Of a stretch of DNA of 64,000 nucleotides, positions 410 to 63,530 are shown piece by piece. Location of the stretch: contig JAFRYI010000007.1 in assembly GCA_017437745.1 (NCBI GenBank), positions 1 through 64,000 on the forward strand, written 5' to 3'. The notes beneath the pieces are model-generated. The model was not told where the DNA came from, ran no database searches, and was given only the letters and a program-made list of their open reading frames with translations. The number at the start of each line of letters is the position of its first letter. Position 1 is the first letter of the stretch. A program made the position numbers and the translations under genes. This stretch comes from Bacillota bacterium (GTDB lineage Bacteria; Bacillota; Clostridia; Peptostreptococcales; Anaerovoracaceae).

Positions 410-415
410 TCAATT

Positions 416-508
416 AATAGGGTGCTGCCGCGCAAGCGGAATTACCCAAGGTGGTTAACGAAGTAACCGACCGTTGCGGTAAAATCTGGGCGGTTACTTC
501 TGTTTTTT
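416..508 (+). ncRNA. Predicted ~93-nt antisense RNA, copy 1 (putative antitoxin RNA)
   Basis: Predicted from the promoter at 381-409 to the terminator: a 10-bp perfect stem (GAAGTAACCG at 460-469, CGGTTACTTC at 491-500) followed by TGTTTTTT. The RNA has no convincing ORF. Its 5' part carries the GTGCTGCCG element shared with the sister RNAs. Its last 15 nt lie inside the 3' end of the minus-strand peptide gene, so it is complementary to that gene's 3' UTR and final codons. An antitoxin role is inferred from layout only. Confidence 0.65.
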
Positions 509-583
509 GCCTATTTCATACCCGAGCATGAAACAGGTTATGCAAACGCCTATTATTGTAAGCAAAGCTTCAATAGTCAGCAT
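494..583 (-). CDS. 29-residue hydrophobic membrane peptide, copy 1 (type I toxin-like)
   Basis: A short gene with a good Shine-Dalgarno sequence (GGAGGG, six bases before ATG). The peptide is one transmembrane segment with an acidic residue near the start (Glu5), the family core CITCFMLGY (residues 14-22), and a basic tail KKQK. Two paralogues in this window (16580-16681 and 37938-38033) share the core C(I/V)(T/S)CFM(A/L)G(Y/F) and the KKxK tail. Size, hydrophobicity and convergent antisense RNA resemble small holin-like or TxpA/Fst-type toxins, but I cannot assign it to a named family. Real expression is supported by three-copy conservation of start, SD and stop. Confidence 0.7.
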   Translation of the reverse strand: MLTIEALLTIIGVCITCFMLGYEIGKKQK

Positions 584-12610: not shown

Positions 12611-13441
12611 ATGGATGTAAAAGATTACTTCGACATAGTAGATAAGGCGTACGCTACGGAAGACCACAAAGTAATAGAATCGGAGATAAAACGCGCGGCT
12701 CAGCTGGCTGAGCAGAACGAAGGTTCGGAAAGCGCGCTGTACGCAGCCATGCTCTCCGAGCTGGGCGGTTTCTACAGGGGAATGACCCGCTTTGACGAGT
12801 GTCTGGACTGCTTCAGCAAGGCCGCGGAGATAATGAAGACCGCCAAGGGCGAGGATTCCGCGGACTACGCCACCTGCGTCAACAATCACGCCAGCGCATA
12901 CCGGCTGATGGGCCGCTTCGACGAGGCTCAGGAAGAACTGGAAAAGTGCCTGAAGATATACGAAAAAGCCGTGGGTAAAAAGCACATACTCTACGCTTCC
13001 GCGCTAAACAATCTGGGAATGGTGGCGCTCAACCGGGAGGATCCGGACAGCGCCATGGACTATCTGGAGGAGGCCGCGGACATACTTAAGGAACTGCCGG
13101 GGCATCTGTTCGAGTACGGTTCGTCGCTCGCGAACAACGCGGAGATCTACCGTCTGATGGGGCGCTACGGCGAGGCGGAGGAGAACCTGCTTAAGGCAAA
13201 GGCGGTGTACGACACGGAGCTTAAGGACACGTACACGTCGCATTATCACGCGATACTCAACAGCCTGGGGCTGGTCTGCATGGCTACGCGCAGGTACAAG
13301 GAGGCGGCGGACTGGTTCGAACAGGCGCTGACCGCCTGCGAGCGCTACTTCGGGAAGGATCACCGCGAATACAAGTCCACGGAACACAATCTGGAAGTCG
13401 TAAAGGCTCTGATCGAAGGTCCGAAGGACGATCTGATATAG
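12611..13441 (+). CDS. Tetratricopeptide repeat protein
   Basis: 276 residues, no signal peptide. Five TPR-like units of about 42 residues can be followed, e.g. ALNNLGMVALNREDPDSAMD and SLANNAEIYRLMGRYGEAEE, in the kinesin-light-chain style with repeated LxxLGxxY/AxxxxxxA patterns. TPR arrays bind proteins, so this is probably a scaffold or recognition partner. It is followed 70 bp later by the DUF4037 gene and is divergent from the glycyl-radical activase. Confidence 0.88.
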   Translation: MDVKDYFDIVDKAYATEDHKVIESEIKRAAQLAEQNEGSESALYAAMLSELGGFYRGMTRFDECLDCFSKAAEIMKTAKGEDSADYATCVNNHASAYRLMGRFDEAQEELEKCLKIYEKAVGKKHILYASALNNLGMVALNREDPDSAMDYLEEAADILKELPGHLFEYGSSLANNAEIYRLMGRYGEAEENLLKAKAVYDTELKDTYTSHYHAILNSLGLVCMATRRYKEAADWFEQALTACERYFGKDHREYKSTEHNLEVVKALIEGPKDDLI

Positions 13442-16495: not shown

Positions 16496-16501
16496 TGTGT
16501 T

Positions 16502-16594
16502 AGCAAAAGGCTGCCGGAAAGACGGTCAGTCCCTAAGATTGGTTATCTGAAATAACCGCTCGGATCAGGAACGTGGCGGTTATTTCTGTTTTTT
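16502..16594 (+). ncRNA. Predicted ~93-nt antisense RNA, copy 2
   Basis: Bounded by the promoter above and by an 11-bp perfect terminator stem (GAAATAACCGC at 16549-16559 with GCGGTTATTTC at 16576-16586) followed by TGTTTTTT. It begins with the shared GGCTGCCGG element. The last 15 nt are antisense to the final codons and stop of the peptide gene at 16580-16681. Confidence 0.68.
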
Positions 16595-16762
16595 GCCGCT
16601 GTTACGCGAGCCAAGGTTGTAGCCTGCCATAAAGCAGGTCACACACAGCGATAATATCGCTATCATGGACTCAACATTCATACGCCCTCCTTTCTCCCCT
16701 TTTGAAAAGGGTGGAGGAACAGGTCCCCCGAAGAGGACTGACCGCCTACCGTGTCCGGCAGC
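16509..16762. repeat. Inverted repeat shared by the two converging transcripts of locus 2
   Basis: GGCTGCCGG...GACGGTCAGTCC (16509-16532) recurs inverted as GGACTGACCGCC...CCGGCAGC (16735-16762). Both the antisense RNA and the peptide mRNA would start with nearly the same 5' sequence. Loci 1 and 3 show weaker versions of the same arrangement around GCTGCCG/GCACTGC. Confidence 0.7.
16580..16681 (-). CDS. 33-residue hydrophobic membrane peptide, copy 2 (type I toxin-like)
   Basis: Start chosen at the ATG preceded by GGAGAAAGGAGGG; the reading frame stays open upstream but without an SD. One membrane span, the family core CVTCFMAGY and a basic tail GKKQK. The leader holds CCTCC (plus-strand GGAGG at 16713-16717) and a CCCTTTT/AAAAGGG hairpin next to the SD, so the SD can be masked by pairing. 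Paralogous to 494-583 and 37938-38033. Confidence 0.7.
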   Translation of the reverse strand: MNVESMIAILSLCVTCFMAGYNLGSRNSGKKQK

Positions 16763-16845
16763 GCTTTTGCAATTAATATGATACCAGCGGGAGCGGAAAA
16801 ACAGTAGCGGATCATTAGTCAAAACGGCACACATTTATTCAGCTT

Positions 16846-20781: not shown

Positions 20782-22161
20782 ATGGCTAAGAAAGAAACAG
20801 CACCTTACAAGATCTATCTTACGGAAAACGAGCTTCCCACCAGTTGGTATAACCTGAGGGCGGACATGAAGACCAAGCCCGCTCCGCTGCTCCACCCGGG
20901 AACGCTCAAGCCCCTTAAATTCGAAGACATGCAGCCCATCTTCTGCGATGAGCTGATAAAGCAGGAACTGGACAACGACACGCAGTTCATTCCCATCCCG
21001 GGACCGGTAATGGACTTCTACAAGATGTACAGACCTTCGCCGCTGGTACACGCGGAGTTCCTGGAAAAGCTCCTGGACACCCCGGCAAAGATCTACTACA
21101 AGTTCGAGGGCAACAACACCTCCGGAAGCCACAAGCTCAATTCCGCGATAGCCCAGGCATACTACGCAAAGGCTCAGGGCCTTAAGGGCGTCACCACCGA
21201 GACCGGAGCCGGCCAGTGGGGCACCGCGCTTTCCATGGCTTGCTCCTACTTCGACCTGGACTGCAAGGTATACATGGTTAAAGTGTCCTACGAGCAGAAG
21301 CCTTTCCGCCGTGAAGTGATGCGCACCTACGGCGCCAACGTCACTCCGTCCCCGTCCATGGATACCGAGGTGGGCCGCAGGATCAACGCGGAGCACCCGG
21401 GAACCACCGGATCCCTGGGATGCGCCATCTCCGAGGCTGTGGAAGTTGCGGTAAGCACTCCCGGCTACAGATACGAGCTGGGCAGCGTGCTCAATCAGGT
21501 GCTTCTGCACCAGTCCGTGATAGGTCTGGAGACCAAGGCAGCCTGCGACAAGTACGGAATAGAACCGGACATCATCATCGGCTGCGCAGGCGGCGGCTCC
21601 AATCTGGGCGGACTGATAGCTCCGTTCATGGGAGAAAAGCTCCGCGGAGAGAAGGACTACAGGTTCATAGCGGTAGAACCCGCGTCCTGCCCCAGCTTTA
21701 CCCGCGGTAAGTACGTATACGATTTCGCGGACACCGGCAAGGTGTGCCCCATGGCTAAGATGTACACTCTGGGTCACGACTTCATTCCTTCCGCCAACCA
21801 CGCGGGCGGCCTCAGGTACCACGGCATGAGCCCGGTGCTCTCCGAGCTCTACCACGAAGGACTTATGGAGGCCAGATCCTACGAGCAGACCGCGGTGTTC
21901 GAGGCTGCCGTACAGTTCGCCAGGGTAGAGGGAATACTCCCCGCTCCGGAATCCGCTCACGCTATAAAGGGCGCGATAGACGAGGCTCTTAAGTGCAAGG
22001 AGACCGGCGAAGAGAAGACCATAATCTTCGGCCTTACCGGCACCGGCTACTTCGACCTCGTGGCTTACCAGAAGTACAACGACGGCGAGATGAGCGACTA
22101 CATCCCCACCGACGAAGACCTCGCGAAAGGCTTCGCCAGCATCCCGCAGGTAGATCTGTAA
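20782..22161 (+). CDS. trpB: Tryptophan synthase beta chain, TrpB2 type
   Basis: 459 residues from the ATG with AGAGGT seven bases upstream; the frame is open further upstream only as part of the T-box leader. A PLP enzyme making L-tryptophan from indole and serine. The long N-terminal extension (ENELPTSWYN) and sequence type are those of TrpB2. PLP lysine in NNTSGSHKLNSA (about residue 117), phosphate-binding GCAGGGSNLGG (about 268). No trpA or other trp gene is adjacent, and TrpB2 proteins usually do not pair with TrpA, so indole salvage is the likely role. Controlled by the Trp T-box. Confidence 0.94.
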   Translation: MAKKETAPYKIYLTENELPTSWYNLRADMKTKPAPLLHPGTLKPLKFEDMQPIFCDELIKQELDNDTQFIPIPGPVMDFYKMYRPSPLVHAEFLEKLLDTPAKIYYKFEGNNTSGSHKLNSAIAQAYYAKAQGLKGVTTETGAGQWGTALSMACSYFDLDCKVYMVKVSYEQKPFRREVMRTYGANVTPSPSMDTEVGRRINAEHPGTTGSLGCAISEAVEVAVSTPGYRYELGSVLNQVLLHQSVIGLETKAACDKYGIEPDIIIGCAGGGSNLGGLIAPFMGEKLRGEKDYRFIAVEPASCPSFTRGKYVYDFADTGKVCPMAKMYTLGHDFIPSANHAGGLRYHGMSPVLSELYHEGLMEARSYEQTAVFEAAVQFARVEGILPAPESAHAIKGAIDEALKCKETGEEKTIIFGLTGTGYFDLVAYQKYNDGEMSDYIPTDEDLAKGFASIPQVDL

Positions 22162-37821: not shown

Positions 37822-37850
37822 TTGACATCCGCCGGGTCGTTTGTTATGCT
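37822..37850 (+). promoter_or_regulatory. Promoter of antisense RNA 3
   Basis: TTGACA (37822-37827), 17-bp spacer, TATGCT (37845-37850). Confidence 0.82.
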
Positions 37851-37856
37851 TGTATA

Positions 37857-37952
37857 CGAAAAGAGGCACTGCCGACAGGCGGTCCTCCCTTCGGAGTTAG
37901 ATCACAATGTGACCGCGTCCTTGGTTAGGTTGGGCGGTCACTTGTGTTTTTT
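37857..37952 (+). ncRNA. Predicted ~96-nt antisense RNA, copy 3
   Basis: Bounded by the promoter above and a terminator with stem GTGACCGC (37909-37916) and GCGGTCAC (37934-37941), then TTGTGTTTTTT. The 5' part carries GGCACTGCCG. The last 15 nt are antisense to the end of the peptide gene at 37938-38033. Confidence 0.68.
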
Positions 37953-38033
37953 GGAATAGTATCCTAGCGTAAAGCCTGCCATGAAGCAGCTAATACACAG
38001 ACCCAGCAGGGTCATGATATCAGTCAGATCCAT
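37938..38033 (-). CDS. 31-residue hydrophobic membrane peptide, copy 3 (type I toxin-like)
   Basis: Preceded by AAGGGGGTGG. Acidic N-terminus (MDLTD), one membrane span containing the family core CISCFMAGF, and a basic tail SKKHK. Its leader has a CACCCT/AGGGTG hairpin, and the CACCCTT arm could instead pair with the SD. Paralogous to 494-583 and 16580-16681. Confidence 0.7.
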   Translation of the reverse strand: MDLTDIMTLLGLCISCFMAGFTLGYYSKKHK

Positions 38034-38133
38034 ATTTACCACCCCCTTTCTGCCGTAAGGCTTTAAGAGGGCACAAGCACCCTCCGTCCTCCGAAGGGTG
38101 TTCCGCCTACCGCTGCTGCAGTGCCGTGAGACC

Positions 38134-38161
38134 ATTATACCTGCAGCAGCTTAAATGTCAT
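38134..38161 (-). promoter_or_regulatory. Promoter of peptide gene copy 3
   Basis: Minus strand ATGACA, 16-bp spacer, TATAAT (plus-strand ATTATA at 38134-38139, TGTCAT at 38156-38161). The RNA would start just before GCACTGC, about 95 nt ahead of the start codon. Confidence 0.72.
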
Positions 38162-38261
38162 TACTTACGGGCAAAGTGTGTGCCGTTTTATAGTAAAAAC
38201 CCTGTCTTTGTGATAAAATAAAATATCAACTTTAACGAGTAAACACTCAGAGGAATTCCAC

Positions 38262-55925: not shown

Positions 55926-58900
55926 ATGAGTAAAAAAAGATTGTTAGCAATAGTGCTGACGCTCGTCATGGTGCTCAGCCTGATACCGCAGGTTTCATAT
56001 GCGGCGGCAGGCGATCCACCGGCGAATAGCAAGACATTGACTGACAACGGTGACGGCACCTATAAGCTCGAACTGAGCGTAACGGGTGACGCCGACTATG
56101 AGTCAGAACCTGTAAAGGCAAATGTCATCATCGTTCTTGACACTTCAGGATCGATGGATTTCCTGATCCCGTCCACTACGGGCAGCCGTGGTTCAACTGC
56201 GACTGATGGTGATACGAGGAACAACAACTTCCAGCTCTATCGTAACACCGGAGGGAACAACTACACTGCTATTGCTGATAGTGATAACTATAGTGGTACA
56301 GTATACTACTATCAGAATGGTTATGGTGGCGGTTGGAGAACATACACTGGTACTCGTTATTCAACGACCTCTCGTATGGATGCCACAAAGACGTCCGTCA
56401 ATAACCTCATCGATACGCTGGCCAGTCAGAACACGACGGCAAATCCCGACACAATCGAGATGTCGCTGATCACGTTCGCAAGCGACGGTGCGTACAACAC
56501 ACCCAACAGTGCAACAGCTAATAACTGGGTGAGCGGCACTGCAACGACCCTTAAGACCACGGTAAGCAACCTTAACGCCACCGGCGGTACCAACTGGGAT
56601 GATGCGCTCTATCGTGCAAATGCTCTGGCTGCGGCAAAGGCAACGGCTCAGCCTAACGAAAAAGTCTTCATCGTGTTCTTCTCCGATGGTGAACCTACGT
56701 TCAGCAATACGAATAGCAACAGCGATTCGCCTACTAGCCATACGCACGGAAACAACTCCAACAACGGTGGCAGTGGCACAACGACTCAGGATCGCGAAGC
56801 CAACTCTGCTTACTACCACGCAAATCAGATCCATAGCGCATCTTATGACAGCGCGCTCTATGGTATCTTCGCTTTTGGTACCGAAGAGAGCTACATGAAG
56901 AACGTCATCAGCTACGGCAACTATGGCGATGCGACCCATGCAAGCTCAGTTGAAGGCAGTCTCTACTTCAATGCCAACAGCCCCGAGGATATCGAAAACG
57001 CCTTCAGTAAGATCGCATCATCGATCATCGAAGCCGTAGGTATTACGGATGTATCCATTACAGACGGTACTACCAGCCATGTTGAAACCAGCACAGAGCC
57101 TGCAGAACTTCTTAATGTTGATGACGAGTCATTCGAATATTGGCTTAGCTGGAACCTTTCCTCAGGAAGCAACAAGTTCACGTCGTTCATTGGCGGAGAA
57201 CAAGTCGAGTGCACAGCTACGGCGAGCGGGGACAATATCGTCATCACCTGGGAAGGTGGAACGGCTACGTATGAGGGAACCATTACCGGCAGCGTCGTCA
57301 AAGTCAAGTGGACCGGAAAGACCGATTTCTATGACTTCGATCCTCCGGCTGCCTCCTTCGATGAAGACTCCGGTGCAGTGAACTGGAGTCTTGACTCTGT
57401 CGGAACACTTCTTAATGGTGTTACCTACTCTGTGAGCTTTGATGTCTACCCCAGCCAGGAGACTCTCGACACTGTTGCAGATATCAAGAATGATCCCGGC
57501 GCAACTGGCGCATGGGCAGACCTTGATCCTGCTATCCAGCAGTATATTGATGTGAATGGGAACTTAAAGACCAACACCACGGCCACGATCACCTACTCCG
57601 ATACGCGACTGGATAATCCTGGTCCCAAACAAACTACCATGACGAATCCTGATCCTGTGAAGAACAGTGCTATCAAAGAGCTGGCCGTCACAAAGGTGTG
57701 GGACAACGCGCTTGAGTCAGATTGGACTAAGCCCACAAGCATCGATCTTGATGTGACGCGCGACGGACAACCTCACTATACTGTTAGCCTTGGCGAGAGC
57801 AACTCATGGACTGGCACCGTCTATATATCCATTGGTATCATGGGGCCAGATGGCAAGCCGCTGGAAGGATCAGAGGGTCACGACTTCACATTTACCGAGC
57901 CTCAGATATCGGAAGGTTTTAGATGGGAAATAGACGCGCCCACTGTTCATCCGATGCTTATCAACAACGTAGTGACCATGCTCATCAAAGTCGATGCTGA
58001 TCATCCGGCACCTTCTGGAGCGACGACCTACACATTTAATAACGCTACTTACTACGTTGACAATGCGGCTGCGGCACTCACTGCAACCAACGAACGCCGC
58101 TCCAGTCTCAATCTGGTTAAGGCCGTCGACGGCGATGACGCGCCTGAAGACGCCGTGTTCCCATTCACGCTGAATGTTGTGAACTCACTTGCTCCCGAGA
58201 GCGAGCCGACAAACGATCCTGGTCACGACTCTGACTGGTGGGTGTGGATCTCGATTTGGGACAAGGATAAGCAGGCCGTCACCGAAGGAGCTGTGGTCAG
58301 CGGCGCTACCCACGCTGGAGGAAGCTGGTACTACGGCGTTAGCGGTCAGAATATTGTCCTCAACGTCAAGGACGGCTACTCTATCCGTATAAACAACGTG
58401 CCTACTGGTACGACCTATACCATCACCGAGGGTAACAGCACCACGCCTGGTTTTATCTTCGATACTGCCGAGATCAAGTTCACAGAGGGCAAGCAGCCCT
58501 CCTCCGCCTGGGCTTTCACCGGCGACCAGACCTCAACCGGTTCGATCGATTCCACCAACGCGGTCTACACCGTTACCTATACCAACACTTATCAGCTCAT
58601 CGACGTTAACGTCGATAAGGTCTGGGATGACAACAGCAACCAGGACGGCGTCCGTCCCGAGTCGCTTACTCTGACCCTCAACGGCGCGCCGAGCGGCACC
58701 ACCGTCCCCAACCCCACCATCACCAAGAGTGAGGACGGCAATACCTGGACCTACGTCTGGAAGGGCCTGCCCAGGTTTGACGCCGACGGCAACGAGATTA
58801 CTTACACCGTAACCGAAGGCACCGTGCCACAAGGTTATGATTGCACAAAGACCACCGTCAACGACGGAGACGAGATCAAAAACGTACATACACCGGAGAC

Positions 58901-61900
58901 ATTAAGCAAGGTTGCTACCAAGGAATGGGCAGACGGAAATAACGCGAATAACTCGAGGCCCTCTTCCGTCACCTTCAATCTTATGAAGAAGGTTGGAGAA
59001 GCTGAAGCGGAGGAGATCCTGGAGGTAACTCTCGACGGAGCCCCGGACGATGCTTCTACCGAAGAAGGTCCTGCCGGATATGAATCCACAGCATGGGAAG
59101 CTACGTTCATCAATCTGCCGAAGTATGAGAAAGGTGTTGAGATCACTTACTCCATTACTGAGGATCCGGTAGACAAATACGCGACGACCATCACTGATGG
59201 CGAAAACGGAACTACCGTTACCAATACATATGACTTCGGCGATCTCGAGATCACCAAGACCGTTGATCCCGGCAACGGAGATACCGGCAAGACTTCCGAA
59301 AAGGAATTCACGTTCACGGTAAACCTCTATAAGGATAGCACCAAGGCCGAAACCGTTTCGGGAAGCTTCAACTACACCATTACTAACGCCTCCGGAACGA
59401 CTCAGTCGACCGGCACGATCTCCAATGGAGAAACAGTAAAACTCAAGGATGGTTGGAAAGTCCTCATTGAGGATATTCCTAACGGAACGTATTATGAAGT
59501 AACTGAAGCAACTGAAAAGGGCTACACCACCAGCAAGACCGGCGATACCGGCACTATCGTGAGCAACGAGACCAAGACCGCTGCTTTCACGAATACTTAT
59601 AATGCGGATCCTGTAAAGGCACAGATCCCTGTTGTCAAGAACGTTACTCCTGAAAACTCCGGAGCGGCTGACATCACCGGAAAGTTCACCTTCACGCTTG
59701 CGGCGGGAACAAATACTGCAGGCGAAGGTGTTACCACCCCGATGCCCTCTGCTAACACAGTCGCATGCGGAGCTGACGGTGTTGAAGTCAAGTTCGGCGA
59801 GATAACGTTCAACGCTCCTGGGACCTACACCTACACAGTGACTGAGTCCGAGACAAACGGAGCTGTCGGCGGCATTACGCTCGACTCCGACAAGCCGAGG
59901 ACCATAACCGTTGTCGTAACAGATGACGGAGAAGGAAAACTCTCTGCTGCAGTAAACGGCGGCGCGACTGTTGAATTCAACAACCCGTATCAGCTGACAT
60001 CGCTGGATATCACGATCCCTGTTGAAAAGATCCTTGAGGTACCTACTGGCCTTACTGGTCCGGATATCACCGAGGCTTACACCTTCACGATCGCTACCAC
60101 AAATAATGCTCCGCTGCCTGAGACGAAGACTCTCCAGAACCCCGGCGCTGCAGGCGGTTCCATGACTTTCGGTGAAAAAGCAACTACTGGTAAGATCACC
60201 ATTACCGAGCCCGGAACCTATACCTATACTATTACTGAGTCCGGAAGCGCTCCCGGAGTTACAAACGATGCAGAGGCCACCAAGACCGTTACGGTAACAG
60301 TTGTCAACGATGGTGATGGCACCATGTCCTACACCATCAATGATGCTGATAATGAGAATGATGACGTTACCAAGTTCACCAATACTTACAGCGCGGAGCC
60401 TGTAAATGCCAGCATCTATGTAAAGAAGGTTCTCGCAGGAGCCAATGCGCCTGATATCACCAACAAGTTTACATTCACGATTGCTGATGATCCTTCAGAT
60501 GATGTGACATCACCGCTGCCCGAAACAAAGTCAGGCAACAACCCGGCTGTGAATGGCGGAGTCGTGACATTTGGACCGATCGAATATACCGCACCCGGAA
60601 CCTATGTTTACGTGATCACAGAGTCCGGAACAGTCGAGGGTGTTGTAAACGATCCTGAAGCTTCGACTGGTAAGAAGGTTACTGTGGTAATTGTAGATGG
60701 CAAGGAAGGAGCGCTCGTGGTCAAGAGCAGTACTTCTACAGAAGAAAGCCCGCTTCAGTTCACCAATTCCTACCACGAGATCACAGCTAATATTACTGTG
60801 ACCAAGGAACTTGCTAAGAATCCAACGAATCTCGAAGGACCTGATATCACAGGCAAGTACACATTTACTATCGCAGCAGGAACCAATACTGCTGGTGAGG
60901 GCGTAACGACTCCGATGCCTGCGACCACTTCCGTTACTAACAGCGGCGGTGCGATGCAGTTCGGACCGATCACCTTCAAAGAACCGGGCGAATACACTTA
61001 CACAGCAACTGAGTCCGGAAAAGTTGACGGCGTGACCAACGATACGGAGACAAAGACCGTTACTATTGTAGTCGCCAGAAACGATGAAGGTAATCTCACA
61101 GTTGGATACAAAGAAGGATCCAAGACCAGCTTCGACTTTGTCAACACTTACACTGTTAAGCCTGTTACGGCGAAGTTCCCCGTTAAGAAGGTCATGAGCG
61201 TTCCTGCCGGACTTACCGGACCTTCTGAGTGGAGCTACACTATTGGTGTTGCTGCCGAAGACGGTGCTCCTGTGGCAGATTCCATGACAGGAACTGTGAC
61301 CAAGGCTGAGCCCACCGTCACTTTTGGAGACTTTACCTTCACTGCGCCCGGAACCTATACCTACACAGTTACAGAGACAGCGACCGGCGAGATTAAAGGT
61401 GTAACCGACGATTCTGCGGCATCGACCGGTAAGACTGTACAGATTACAGTAACTGATAATAAGGACGGTACGCTTACTGCTACACCGTCCAGCACAGCAG
61501 ATAATCCGCTCACATTCACCAACAGCTACAGCGCTACGTCGATCACTGCTACCATTCAGGTGCACAAAGATCTGGTAGCCGAGAATCCGAAGGTATCCTT
61601 ACCGGATATCACGGAAAAGTATACATTCACGCTCGCTGATGATACATCGGATGACGTGGATTCACCGCTGCCTGAGACCAAGGAAGTCAAGAACCCTGCA
61701 AAGGATGGCGGTACCGTACCATTCGGAACTATTACATACGAAGCTCCGGGAACATATACTTACGTTGTAACAGAGTCCGGAACAGTAACTAATGTTACTA
61801 ATGATCCCGAGGCGACAACAGGCAAGAAAGTGACTGTTGAAGTTGTCGACGGAGGAGAAGGCAAGCTTGTTGCAACTGTAAAGTATCCTGATGCAGAAAA

Positions 61901-63530
61901 GGCTGAAGTAGACTTTACCAACACCTACAAGGCGCCTCCTGTGGAAGCAAGCTTCCCGGTACAGAAGATCGTCAGCGTGCCTGATGGACTCACCGGACCT
62001 TCTGAGTGGAGCTACACTATCGATGTTGCCGCAAACGGAACCGCTCCTGCAGCGAAGACCATGACAGGTACTGTAACCAACAGCAAGGATACAGTCACCT
62101 TCGGACCGTTCAGCTTCACAGAGCCCGGCGAATTCACTTACACTGTGAAAGAGACCGGAACCGTTAAGGGTGTTACCAACGATAAGGAAGCCGCCGGCAA
62201 GACCGTGACAGTAAAAGTAATTGATAACGGAGACGGAACGCTCAAAGCTACACCGAGTGTAAGCGATGAGTCACCGCTTAAGTTCACAAATACTTACGCA
62301 GTAGAGCCTACGACGGCAAGCTTCCCGGTCAAGAAGGTCATCGATGTTCCTAAGGGACTCACCGGACCTAAGACCTGGAGCTTCACTATCGACGTTGCTG
62401 CAAACGGAAGTGCTCCTGTGGCAAAGACCATGACAGGTACTGTTGATCAGAATAACGACACAGTCACCTTCGGAGACTTCACTTATACCGAACCTGGAAC
62501 CTATACTTACAAGGTTACAGAGACCGGAACCGTTAAGGGTGTGACCAACGATAAGGATGCTGCCAGCGGCAAGACCGTGACTGTTACCGTAAAGGATAAC
62601 GGAGACGGAACACTCACAGCTACAGCTGACTCTACTGCGGACAAGCCGATCGAGTTCACTAACACTTACAGTGTTGAGCCTGTAAAGGTCGACCCGCCGG
62701 TAAAGAAGAATATCGATGGTAATGAGTCGCTCTACAACAAGGGAGACTTCACATTCAAGATCGAGTGCACGAAGATGCCTGCCGGAGTTGAGAAGGCCCC
62801 GATGCCTGACAAGACTGAGGTCAAGAATGTCAAGGCTGATGAGCATCCGGAGAAGAAGGGTTACTATGAATTCGGCTGGATCACCTTCACGGTGCCCGGA
62901 GAATATATCTACACAGTGACCGAGTCCGGAAGCGCTCCCGGAGTTACAAACGATTCGGAGGCTACCAAGACTCTGAAGTTCACAGTAACTGATGGCGGCG
63001 AAGGCGTTCTCGAGATCACACCGACCTCTGATAGTGCGGTATTCGAATTTACCAACACTTATGGTACGAAGGGCGAATTCGTTCCGGAAGTCACCAAGGT
63101 ACTGGACGGACGCACTCTGAAGGCGGGTGAATTCAAGTTCACACTGTCTGACAGCGACGGCAAGGTTATCGACACCAAGACCAATGCTGCGGACGGAAAG
63201 GTCACATTCGATGCATTGAGCTTCACCGGAGCCGATGACGGAAAGACCTACACCTATACGATCACTGAGGTTAAGGGAACTGACAAAGACGTAGTTTATG
63301 ATACTCACACCGTGACCCTGACAGTCAGCGTGAAGGACAATGGAGACGGAACGATGACGGCAACAGGCACCTACAACGGCGACCAGAAGTTCATAAACAC
63401 CATTGAAGCTCCGGATACCGGCGATCACAGCCAGATAGCTCTCTGGTCCGGCATACTGATCGTATCCCTGCTTGGAATAGCGCTCCTGGCAGTAATCAAG
63501 CGCAAGAAGCCCGCAAAGCACAGCAGATAA
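55926..63530 (+). CDS. Giant wall-anchored surface protein: VWA domain, CnaB-type domains, ten isopeptide pilin-like repeats
   Basis: 2,534 residues. Signal peptide (residues 1-26, ending YAAAG). A VWA domain begins about residue 64 with the metal-site motif DTSGS (72-76) and continues to about 370, including GGTNWDDAL; it carries a Tyr/Gly/Asn-rich insert. Residues about 585-1225 hold CnaB-like domains (ELAVTKVWD, VNVDKVWDD, VATKEWADG, LEITKTVDP). Residues about 1227-2490 are ten repeats of 110-130 residues with an early Lys (VKK), a (V/I)TES/TET glutamate and a final FTNTY, the layout of Spy0128/FctA isopeptide pilin domains. The C-terminus is a sorting signal: APDTG, hydrophobic helix, RKKPAKHSR. 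Likely an adhesin or pilus-tip-like protein fixed by a sortase encoded elsewhere. SD AAGGGAGA. Confidence 0.92.
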   Translation: MSKKRLLAIVLTLVMVLSLIPQVSYAAAGDPPANSKTLTDNGDGTYKLELSVTGDADYESEPVKANVIIVLDTSGSMDFLIPSTTGSRGSTATDGDTRNNNFQLYRNTGGNNYTAIADSDNYSGTVYYYQNGYGGGWRTYTGTRYSTTSRMDATKTSVNNLIDTLASQNTTANPDTIEMSLITFASDGAYNTPNSATANNWVSGTATTLKTTVSNLNATGGTNWDDALYRANALAAAKATAQPNEKVFIVFFSDGEPTFSNTNSNSDSPTSHTHGNNSNNGGSGTTTQDREANSAYYHANQIHSASYDSALYGIFAFGTEESYMKNVISYGNYGDATHASSVEGSLYFNANSPEDIENAFSKIASSIIEAVGITDVSITDGTTSHVETSTEPAELLNVDDESFEYWLSWNLSSGSNKFTSFIGGEQVECTATASGDNIVITWEGGTATYEGTITGSVVKVKWTGKTDFYDFDPPAASFDEDSGAVNWSLDSVGTLLNGVTYSVSFDVYPSQETLDTVADIKNDPGATGAWADLDPAIQQYIDVNGNLKTNTTATITYSDTRLDNPGPKQTTMTNPDPVKNSAIKELAVTKVWDNALESDWTKPTSIDLDVTRDGQPHYTVSLGESNSWTGTVYISIGIMGPDGKPLEGSEGHDFTFTEPQISEGFRWEIDAPTVHPMLINNVVTMLIKVDADHPAPSGATTYTFNNATYYVDNAAAALTATNERRSSLNLVKAVDGDDAPEDAVFPFTLNVVNSLAPESEPTNDPGHDSDWWVWISIWDKDKQAVTEGAVVSGATHAGGSWYYGVSGQNIVLNVKDGYSIRINNVPTGTTYTITEGNSTTPGFIFDTAEIKFTEGKQPSSAWAFTGDQTSTGSIDSTNAVYTVTYTNTYQLIDVNVDKVWDDNSNQDGVRPESLTLTLNGAPSGTTVPNPTITKSEDGNTWTYVWKGLPRFDADGNEITYTVTEGTVPQGYDCTKTTVNDGDEIKNVHTPETLSKVATKEWADGNNANNSRPSSVTFNLMKKVGEAEAEEILEVTLDGAPDDASTEEGPAGYESTAWEATFINLPKYEKGVEITYSITEDPVDKYATTITDGENGTTVTNTYDFGDLEITKTVDPGNGDTGKTSEKEFTFTVNLYKDSTKAETVSGSFNYTITNASGTTQSTGTISNGETVKLKDGWKVLIEDIPNGTYYEVTEATEKGYTTSKTGDTGTIVSNETKTAAFTNTYNADPVKAQIPVVKNVTPENSGAADITGKFTFTLAAGTNTAGEGVTTPMPSANTVACGADGVEVKFGEITFNAPGTYTYTVTESETNGAVGGITLDSDKPRTITVVVTDDGEGKLSAAVNGGATVEFNNPYQLTSLDITIPVEKILEVPTGLTGPDITEAYTFTIATTNNAPLPETKTLQNPGAAGGSMTFGEKATTGKITITEPGTYTYTITESGSAPGVTNDAEATKTVTVTVVNDGDGTMSYTINDADNENDDVTKFTNTYSAEPVNASIYVKKVLAGANAPDITNKFTFTIADDPSDDVTSPLPETKSGNNPAVNGGVVTFGPIEYTAPGTYVYVITESGTVEGVVNDPEASTGKKVTVVIVDGKEGALVVKSSTSTEESPLQFTNSYHEITANITVTKELAKNPTNLEGPDITGKYTFTIAAGTNTAGEGVTTPMPATTSVTNSGGAMQFGPITFKEPGEYTYTATESGKVDGVTNDTETKTVTIVVARNDEGNLTVGYKEGSKTSFDFVNTYTVKPVTAKFPVKKVMSVPAGLTGPSEWSYTIGVAAEDGAPVADSMTGTVTKAEPTVTFGDFTFTAPGTYTYTVTETATGEIKGVTDDSAASTGKTVQITVTDNKDGTLTATPSSTADNPLTFTNSYSATSITATIQVHKDLVAENPKVSLPDITEKYTFTLADDTSDDVDSPLPETKEVKNPAKDGGTVPFGTITYEAPGTYTYVVTESGTVTNVTNDPEATTGKKVTVEVVDGGEGKLVATVKYPDAEKAEVDFTNTYKAPPVEASFPVQKIVSVPDGLTGPSEWSYTIDVAANGTAPAAKTMTGTVTNSKDTVTFGPFSFTEPGEFTYTVKETGTVKGVTNDKEAAGKTVTVKVIDNGDGTLKATPSVSDESPLKFTNTYAVEPTTASFPVKKVIDVPKGLTGPKTWSFTIDVAANGSAPVAKTMTGTVDQNNDTVTFGDFTYTEPGTYTYKVTETGTVKGVTNDKDAASGKTVTVTVKDNGDGTLTATADSTADKPIEFTNTYSVEPVKVDPPVKKNIDGNESLYNKGDFTFKIECTKMPAGVEKAPMPDKTEVKNVKADEHPEKKGYYEFGWITFTVPGEYIYTVTESGSAPGVTNDSEATKTLKFTVTDGGEGVLEITPTSDSAVFEFTNTYGTKGEFVPEVTKVLDGRTLKAGEFKFTLSDSDGKVIDTKTNAADGKVTFDALSFTGADDGKTYTYTITEVKGTDKDVVYDTHTVTLTVSVKDNGDGTMTATGTYNGDQKFINTIEAPDTGDHSQIALWSGILIVSLLGIALLAVIKRKKPAKHSR

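What the first reader, a model, noticed from the sequence alone, without database searches (positions are those of the whole stretch)
37822..38161. Locus 3: the peptide's Lys-Lys tail is encoded by the U-tract of the antisense RNA terminator
In all three loci the antisense RNA overlaps exactly the last 15 nt of the peptide ORF. The plus-strand TTTTTT that ends the RNA is, on the other strand, the AAA AAA codons of the KKxK tail, and the terminator stem contains the peptide's stop. One DNA segment thus satisfies a protein tail, a stop codon and an RNA terminator. Here both opposing promoters are also near consensus (TTGACA-17-TATGCT and ATGACA-16-TATAAT).
Basis: seen in the sequence. Interest (0 to 1): 0.75.

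Follow-up and report, generated by a model that had tools for sequence, protein, structure and literature searches.

The report
Peptide tail doubles as RNA terminator
A rumen bacterium carries many copies of what looks like a tiny membrane poison whose last few codons are also, on the other DNA strand, the stop signal of the RNA that silences it, an arrangement that recurs across the Clostridia and is also visible in the known Bacillus pair BsrG/SR4.

Summary
Observation confirmed. At 37938-37952 the AAA AAA CAC AAG TGA end of a 31-aa membrane peptide is, on the plus strand, the stem arm and U6 tract of a ~95-nt antisense RNA; all three window loci share the 15-nt overlap. Homologues show selection on the RNA: in 22 antisense RNAs 8 of 11 terminator pairs changed on both sides, and KK under the U-tract is AAAAAA in 15 of 16 loci against 4 of 62 KK pairs in window genes. 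The tail itself varies (KKQK, KRK, NDRR, KTQK, IKAQ).

A model of the antisense RNA matches 86 of 291 Clostridia genomes, beside dissimilar 20-40-aa hydrophobic peptides. In the genus, 16 of 33 loci have toxin-side lesions; none of 16 good peptide matches lacks the RNA. mRNA ends pair with each other, and the antisense 5' hairpin copies the mRNA leader. Best reading: a type I toxin-antitoxin module working like Bacillus BsrG/SR4, whose antisense U-tract also coincides with its KKK tail, but outside that Rfam family's cut-off. A widespread new variant of a known kind; no transcript or toxicity has been shown.

The parts
37938..38033 (-). 31-aa hydrophobic peptide ORF (predicted type I toxin), tail SKKHK, stop TGA
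   Evidence: best 17-aa hydropathy 1.98; homologues
37938..37952 (.). 15-nt dual-use segment: AAA AAA CAC AAG TGA on minus; U6 plus 3' stem arm of antisense terminator on plus
   Evidence: covariation
38040..38049 (-). Shine-Dalgarno-like AAAGGGGGTG
38134..38161 (-). mRNA promoter ATGACA-16-TATAAT
37858..38127 (-). predicted toxin mRNA, about 270 nt; its 5' end pairs with its 3' end
   Evidence: z = -6.9; ends inferred
38083..38127 (-). mRNA 5' leader segment (first 45 nt) that pairs with the mRNA 3' end and resembles the antisense 5' leader (GGCACTGC..CTTCGGAG)
37822..37850 (+). antisense promoter TTGACA-17-TATGCT with extended -10
37858..37952 (+). predicted antisense (antitoxin) RNA, about 95 nt, nested inside the mRNA
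   Evidence: model match 37859-37955, E = 9.8e-18; z = -4.6
37858..37892 (.). antisense 5' hairpin on plus; on minus the same DNA is the GC hairpin plus U-tract that probably ends the mRNA
37903..37946 (+). antisense terminator stem-loop (5 + 8 bp), 3' arm containing the complement of the peptide stop
494..583 (-). locus 1 peptide (MLTIEALL...GKKQK); antisense RNA match 415-511 (+)
16580..16681 (-). locus 2 peptide (MNVESMIA...GKKQK); antisense RNA match 16501-16597 (+)

Best explanation
A type I toxin-antitoxin module. From the right-hand promoter a ~270-nt mRNA encodes a single-pass membrane peptide; from the left-hand promoter a ~95-nt antisense RNA is transcribed into it and stops on a terminator placed in the last codons of the ORF. 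Because antisense transcription must end there, the U-tract appears in the peptide as Lys-rich codons and the 3' stem arm as the last residues plus stop; since the peptide only needs a short polar, usually basic, tail, both demands are met by one segment. The mRNA closes on itself, its 5' leader pairing with its own 3' end. The antisense RNA carries the same 5' sequence, so it can take the leader's place on the mRNA 3' end, forming a duplex that is degraded by RNase III and/or returning the leader to a form that hides the ribosome site, as described for SR4 on bsrG mRNA. Shown here by computation: the two overlapping transcription signals, stem covariation, codon bias at the U-tract, predicted 5'-3' pairing, leader mimicry within loci, and toxin-side decay. 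Inferred: that both RNAs are made, that the peptide is toxic, duplex cleavage and the leader-displacement step.
For: Multicopy locus: 11 antisense-RNA loci at E < 1e-12 in this 1.63-Mb genome. Terminator stem: 8 of 11 pairs with changes on both sides; whole structure 88.8% of cells paired, 0 of 500 shuffles reach it, slid controls 25-52%; in that stem 14 G.U on the antisense strand against 5 A.C. The model built from the RNA alone recovers, in 37 of 64 matches analysed, an SD-preceded hydrophobic 20-45-aa ORF whose stop lies inside the terminator, against 1 of 3026 control windows. mRNA and antisense leaders resemble each other within a locus more than between loci (23 loci, 0 of 20000 permutations). 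17 of 17 mRNAs folded put 49-67% of their first 45 nt in pairs with the 3' region. Toxin-side lesions in 16 of 33 assessable genus loci with the RNA match intact; 16 of 16 peptide matches at E < 1e-8 in genus genomes have an RNA match. BsrG/SR4 in SPBc2: ORF ends AAG AAA AAA TAG opposite SR4's TATTTTTTC, and bsrG mRNA folds 5' to 3' (0.65).
Against: No transcript, 3' end or toxicity is shown. The window peptides match no toxin profile and the RNA matches no Rfam family. The SD-switch step is weak: the ribosome site is largely hidden in both states in most folds, and more open in the full-length form in 13 of 17, which is not decisive and includes a mis-placed SD in L050. 9 of the 13 loci counted as having a broken or deleted ORF come from fragmented, incomplete metagenome bins (G002, G003, G004), where assembly error is possible. 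27 of the 64 RNA matches analysed fail the ORF criteria (decayed, weak SD, or possibly false matches). In the 5' hairpin, G.U on the antisense strand (6) barely exceeds A.C (4).
Confidence: 0.82

Rival explanations
1. The peptide is a useful small membrane protein rather than a poison; the antisense RNA sets its dose.
For: Nothing here tests toxicity; several copies with intact frames persist in one genome.
Against: Genus-level lesions fall on the peptide side while the RNA is kept (16 of 33 loci), and none of 16 good peptide matches lacks the RNA. Peptide sequences are interchangeable across families while the RNA is kept. Small size, hydrophobicity and multicopy state are as in known type I toxins.
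Confidence: 0.1
2. The plus-strand element is only a terminator for convergent traffic or a stabilising 3' structure of the mRNA; there is no working antisense RNA.
For: The same stem exists in the mRNA as well; no RNA data.
Against: A promoter near consensus lies upstream of the RNA in this locus; the U-tract is on the plus side only, and G.U pairs favour the antisense strand, 14 against 5; the 5' hairpin and whole RNA are conserved in 86 of 291 genomes.
Confidence: 0.06
3. The peptide ORF is spurious and the locus is an RNA element alone.
For: Some loci keep the RNA and have no frame (L114, L115, L163, L165).
Against: 37 of 64 RNA matches have an SD-preceded hydrophobic ORF ending in the terminator, against 1 of 3026 control windows; conserved F..G...G core in 12 peptides.
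Confidence: 0.02

Closest known systems
BsrG/SR4 of Bacillus subtilis SPbeta (Rfam RF01412)
   Same: Convergent pair paired at 3' ends; toxin ORF ends AAG AAA AAA TAG opposite the antitoxin's TATTTTTTC, so tail, stop and U-tract share DNA; mRNA folds 5' to 3'; a 10-nt stretch is shared by mRNA leader and antitoxin. Reviews describe SR4 invading the mRNA main helix and deepening SD sequestration (PMC6562991 and PMC7430163, passages).
   Different: No Rfam match over cut-off. SR4 is 180 nt (PMC7430163, passage) with about 120 nt of overlap (PMC4147584, passage), so it runs past the bsrG 3' end, whereas here the ~95-nt RNA is nested in the mRNA and its 5' hairpin doubles as the mRNA terminator. 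Window peptides do not match Hol_Tox.
BsrE/SR5 of B. subtilis
   Same: 3' overlap of 114 bp that appears to cover the stop codon, since RNase III is said to cut at the stop codon positions (PMC7430163, passage).
   Different: Not compared at sequence level here.
TxpA/RatA (Rfam RF01776)
   Same: Convergent, 3' overlap, hydrophobic toxin.
   Different: The review passage says RatA does not overlap the toxin coding region (PMC4147584); no RatA match in this genome.
Fst/RNAII of pAD1
   Same: Convergent pair with 3' overlap; repeats shared by both RNAs.
   Different: The shared terminator lies outside the coding region (PMC4147584, passage).
C. difficile CD2517.1/RCd8 and relatives
   Same: Clostridial, multicopy, convergent, lysine-rich C-termini (PMC6563280, the section on C. 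difficile read).
   Different: Mostly 34-53 aa and often prophage-linked; the RNA model found nothing credible in 50,000 of 56,538 bases of phage phiC2 (best E = 4.2).

Membership tests
Type I toxin-antitoxin system | Small hydrophobic single-pass peptide with its own RBS | tested here: met
Type I toxin-antitoxin system | Cis-encoded antisense RNA with own promoter and terminator | tested here: met
   By prediction and covariation only:
Type I toxin-antitoxin system | Peptide arrests growth; RNA represses it | not testable with these tools
   Needs bench work; toxin-side decay is indirect
BsrG/SR4 (RF01412) | Match to the Rfam covariance model at the gathering score | tested here: not met
   Own genome none at E <= 1, B. 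subtilis control rings; L161 27.6 bits (E 0.0066) and L145 22.7 bits against cut-off 55
BsrG/SR4 (RF01412) | Antitoxin 3' end placed in the toxin's last codons | tested here: met
   (sequence reading, ends not mapped here)
BsrG/SR4 (RF01412) | Main helix joining mRNA 5' and 3' regions | tested here: met
   Predicted in 17 of 17 loci folded and in bsrG
Hol_Tox toxins (PF16935) | Pfam gathering score | tested here: not met
   Window peptides no match; one distant locus with the same RNA, L148, passes (27.6 bits, cut-off 23.3)
TxpA/RatA (RF01776) | Rfam match | tested here: inconclusive
   None in own genome, but the B. subtilis control did not ring either
C. difficile RCd-type modules | Related antitoxin RNA | tested here: inconclusive
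   Only a phiC2 segment was searched

The most novel reading that the evidence does not exclude
The lysine-rich tail that is used as a hallmark of type I toxins is, in this class-wide group, largely imposed by the antitoxin's terminator: the RNA chooses the tail, and the hydrophobic core in front of it is interchangeable. One antisense-RNA cassette with a fixed terminator-over-stop design would then have been reused across Clostridia with many unrelated membrane peptides, and the antisense RNA works by impersonating the mRNA's own leader on the mRNA 3' end.
Probability: 0.35. Interest if true: 0.65.

Novelty: new variant of a known kind. Interest (0 to 1): 0.52.

Why it matters
Type I toxins are usually sought by looking for short hydrophobic peptides with charged tails, which has found few in Clostridia (PMC6563280, section on C. 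difficile). An RNA profile of the antisense partner finds candidates directly, in 86 of 291 Clostridia genomes sampled and up to 14 per genome, beside peptides too short and varied to link by sequence. It also gives a testable reason for the charged tail, and natural variants (NDRR, KAI, KTQK tails) for separating the protein's needs from the terminator's.

Tried and rejected
Kissing-loop idea (mRNA GGAGGAC against antisense GUCCUCC), seen in this locus only; not pursued systematically. Mobile or phage origin: blastn of the locus found nothing in phage or plasmid collections, the pattern scan of viral contigs gave 0, and tblastn of relatives' peptides gave one worthless match (E = 7) in phages and nothing in a second phage and a plasmid search. 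Rfam families reported below cut-off in relatives, other than BsrG, were judged chance. Weak Pfam/PHROGs/NCBIfam matches (ZZ_ADA2, BcsF, spanin) were rejected as composition. The R1 match at SPBc2 21247-21327 (18.5 bits) sits at an annotated stem-loop near the yolK/yomA gene ends and was taken as a terminator look-alike; it warns that matches near 18-24 bits may be false. SR4 itself scores only 10 bits with R1 (E 0.0097 in 901 bases, filters off) and is not reported in the 40-kb search, so common descent with SR4 is not claimed. The SD-opening comparison was kept as suggestive only.

Full report
Observation. The finding is as described. The 31-aa ORF at 37938-38033 (-) ends AAA AAA CAC AAG TGA. 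On the plus strand the same bases are the 3' arm of a 13-bp stem and a U6 tract at 37947-37952; the stop codon is inside the stem. The two opposing promoters are present. All three window loci have the same 15-nt overlap (494-508, 16580-16594, 37938-37952), and these three are 3 of the 8 T6-or-longer runs on the plus strand of the window.

Family in the genome and genus. A search of the window's own genome (1.63 Mb, 23 contigs) gave 9 peptide matches; 8 are the same locus type and one (L008) is not. With a profile of six peptides, good matches were limited to the same genus and one other genus in a sample of 61 genomes. Read side by side, the intact loci have a leader hairpin in the mRNA, the peptide, the antisense terminator over the stop, and a second hairpin which is the antisense RNA's 5' end on one strand and a GC hairpin followed by U's on the mRNA strand.

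Is the RNA or the protein being conserved? Four results point to the RNA. First, in 22 aligned antisense RNAs, 11 of 18 pairs have changes on both sides and 88.8% of cells pair, against 25-52% for slid versions and 0 of 500 shuffles; in the terminator stem it is 8 of 11 pairs. The stop codon varies (TGA, TAA, TAG) and its partner in the 3' UTR varies with it. Second, in that stem G.U pairs on the antisense strand outnumber A.C (which would be G.U on the sense strand) 14 to 5; two of the rows (L087, L099) are not in good register and contribute to both. Third, of the 32 loci listed, 16 have KK under the tract: 15 use AAAAAA and one (L051, frameshifted) AAAAAG; the last Lys of the 15 KK[QH]K loci, outside the U-tract, is AAG in 11 and AAA in 4. 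In 28 window genes that I chose from the ORF list Lys is AAG 710, AAA 171, and 4 of 62 KK pairs are AAAAAA. Some loci are near-identical orthologues, so these are not independent counts. In 58 peptides from many genomes, Lys at codon -3 is AAA 31, AAG 0; at -2 AAA 15, AAG 8; upstream of -4 AAA 14, AAG 10 (codons -3 and -2 together against upstream, P = 0.018). Fourth, the tail residues change while the terminator stays: NKNDRR in L004 and L041, where the stem GAACGACCGC is the N-D-R codons; KKSD in L087; KTQK, KRK, KKK, KAI, KAQ and KTV elsewhere.

A class-wide cassette. A covariance model of the antisense RNA (R1) was searched. In the genus, 9 of 11 genomes have matches at E <= 0.1, and the window's genome has 11 loci at E < 1e-12. 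In a sample of 291 genomes of the class, 86 have matches at E <= 0.001, in 60 of 181 genera; by my count of the listed best E-values 52 of these are at 1e-6 or better. Some genomes carry many copies (14 in G316) and one has a tandem row of five within 1.6 kb (G325). I examined 64 matches. The model contains nothing upstream of the tail, yet 37 of 64 have an SD-preceded hydrophobic 20-45-aa ORF whose stop lies inside the terminator, at the same model position in 30 of the 37; the same test in 3026 control windows gave 1. The peptides are diverse: relatives of the window's, holin-like toxins (one, L148, passes the Hol_Tox cut-off) and others such as MKYILKILTLILIILVVFSIKAQ and MEYVYIIIFMIVFITLIESIKK. 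27 of the 64 did not meet the criteria: some are clear remnants, some have weak SDs, some may be false.

Toxin-side decay. Of 34 genus loci at E < 1e-6, one cannot be judged (contig end). By reading the sequences I count 17 intact, 3 with the ORF kept but the mRNA promoter or leader lost (L045, L046, L048), and 13 with the ORF broken or deleted. L049 is the same chromosomal site as the window's locus 3 in another species, with the mRNA promoter, leader and N-terminal codons gone and the antisense RNA kept. In the other direction, 16 of 16 peptide matches at E < 1e-8 in genus genomes have an RNA match. This is what toxin-antitoxin logic predicts, with the caution that 9 of the 13 broken loci lie in fragmented bins.

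How it probably works. The mRNA's 5' leader and the antisense 5' leader resemble each other within each locus more than between loci (23 loci with both ends; trace 598, 0 of 20000 permutations); L009 has 23 identical bases. Since the antisense 5' end is complementary to the mRNA 3' end, this means the mRNA can close 5' to 3'. Folding 17 full-length mRNAs put 49-67% of the first 45 nt in pairs with the 3' region in all 17, and the window mRNA is far more stable than its shuffles. The antisense RNA therefore carries a copy of the very sequence with which the mRNA holds its own tail. I propose that it replaces the leader there, giving a duplex for RNase III and freeing the leader. Whether this hides the ribosome site is unclear: the SD is mostly hidden in both forms and somewhat more open in the full-length form in 13 of 17.

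Comparison with what is known. I read bsrG/SR4 in the SPBc2 record. The BsrG ORF ends AAG AAA AAA TAG, and opposite it SR4's strand reads GGTCTATTTTTTC, so the known, experimentally studied pair has the same shared tail, stop and U-tract. A review gives about 120 nt of 3' overlap (PMC4147584, passages), and counting that from the Rfam 3' end at 12627 lands on the U-tract (12742-12747). The bsrG mRNA also folds 5' to 3' (0.65), and shares a 10-nt stretch between leader and antitoxin (7 of 500 shuffles as good). Review passages describe SR4 invading the main helix and extending SD sequestration from 4 to 8 bp, with RNase III cutting 8 nt past the stop codon (PMC7430163, PMC6562991). For bsrE/SR5 the cut is at the stop codon positions (PMC7430163). 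So the mechanism has a precedent, and the dual-use tail is visible in it, though I did not see it stated: the listings of paper searches and the passages read contain no statement that the antitoxin's terminator encodes the toxin's tail; the primary SR4 paper was not held, and only passages, not whole texts, were read apart from the C. difficile section of PMC6563280. Rfam membership is not met. RatA and Fst are described as not overlapping the coding region (PMC4147584, passages).

Verdict. A real, selected, dual-use DNA segment in a new and widespread variant of a known kind of system. Type I identity rests on anatomy, covariation and decay pattern, not on experiment.

Noticed in passing
window 38179-38189, 721-731, 16821-16831; 23 sites in G000: TGTRCCGTTTT occurs 23 times in the genome (4 for the reversed control pattern), beside 10 of the 11 antisense-RNA loci on the toxin-promoter side and at 13 other sites, most of them followed by a CCAA-like stretch; tandem in L191, inverted pair in L190. 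Operator, repeat or insertion site unknown.
   Followed up: partly
L171 (G325:C1:2361500-2364400): Five copies of the module in tandem, 335-400 bp apart, with near-identical 22-aa peptides, one extended past the usual stop.
   Followed up: partly
L114, L115, L133, L163, L165: Antisense RNAs kept at sites where the peptide is deleted or unreadable; possible solo antitoxins that could protect against related toxins in trans.
   Followed up: partly
L161 1038-1284 (+): Sub-threshold Rfam BsrG match over the full model (27.6 bits, cut-off 55, E 0.0066) at a locus found through R1, a hint of distant common origin.
   Followed up: no
window 55926-63530 (+): A 2534-aa open reading frame; not examined.
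   Followed up: no
L179 21247-21327: R1 match of 18.5 bits at a stem-loop near the yolK/yomA ends in phage SPBc2; probably a terminator look-alike, useful as a false-positive yardstick.
   Followed up: no
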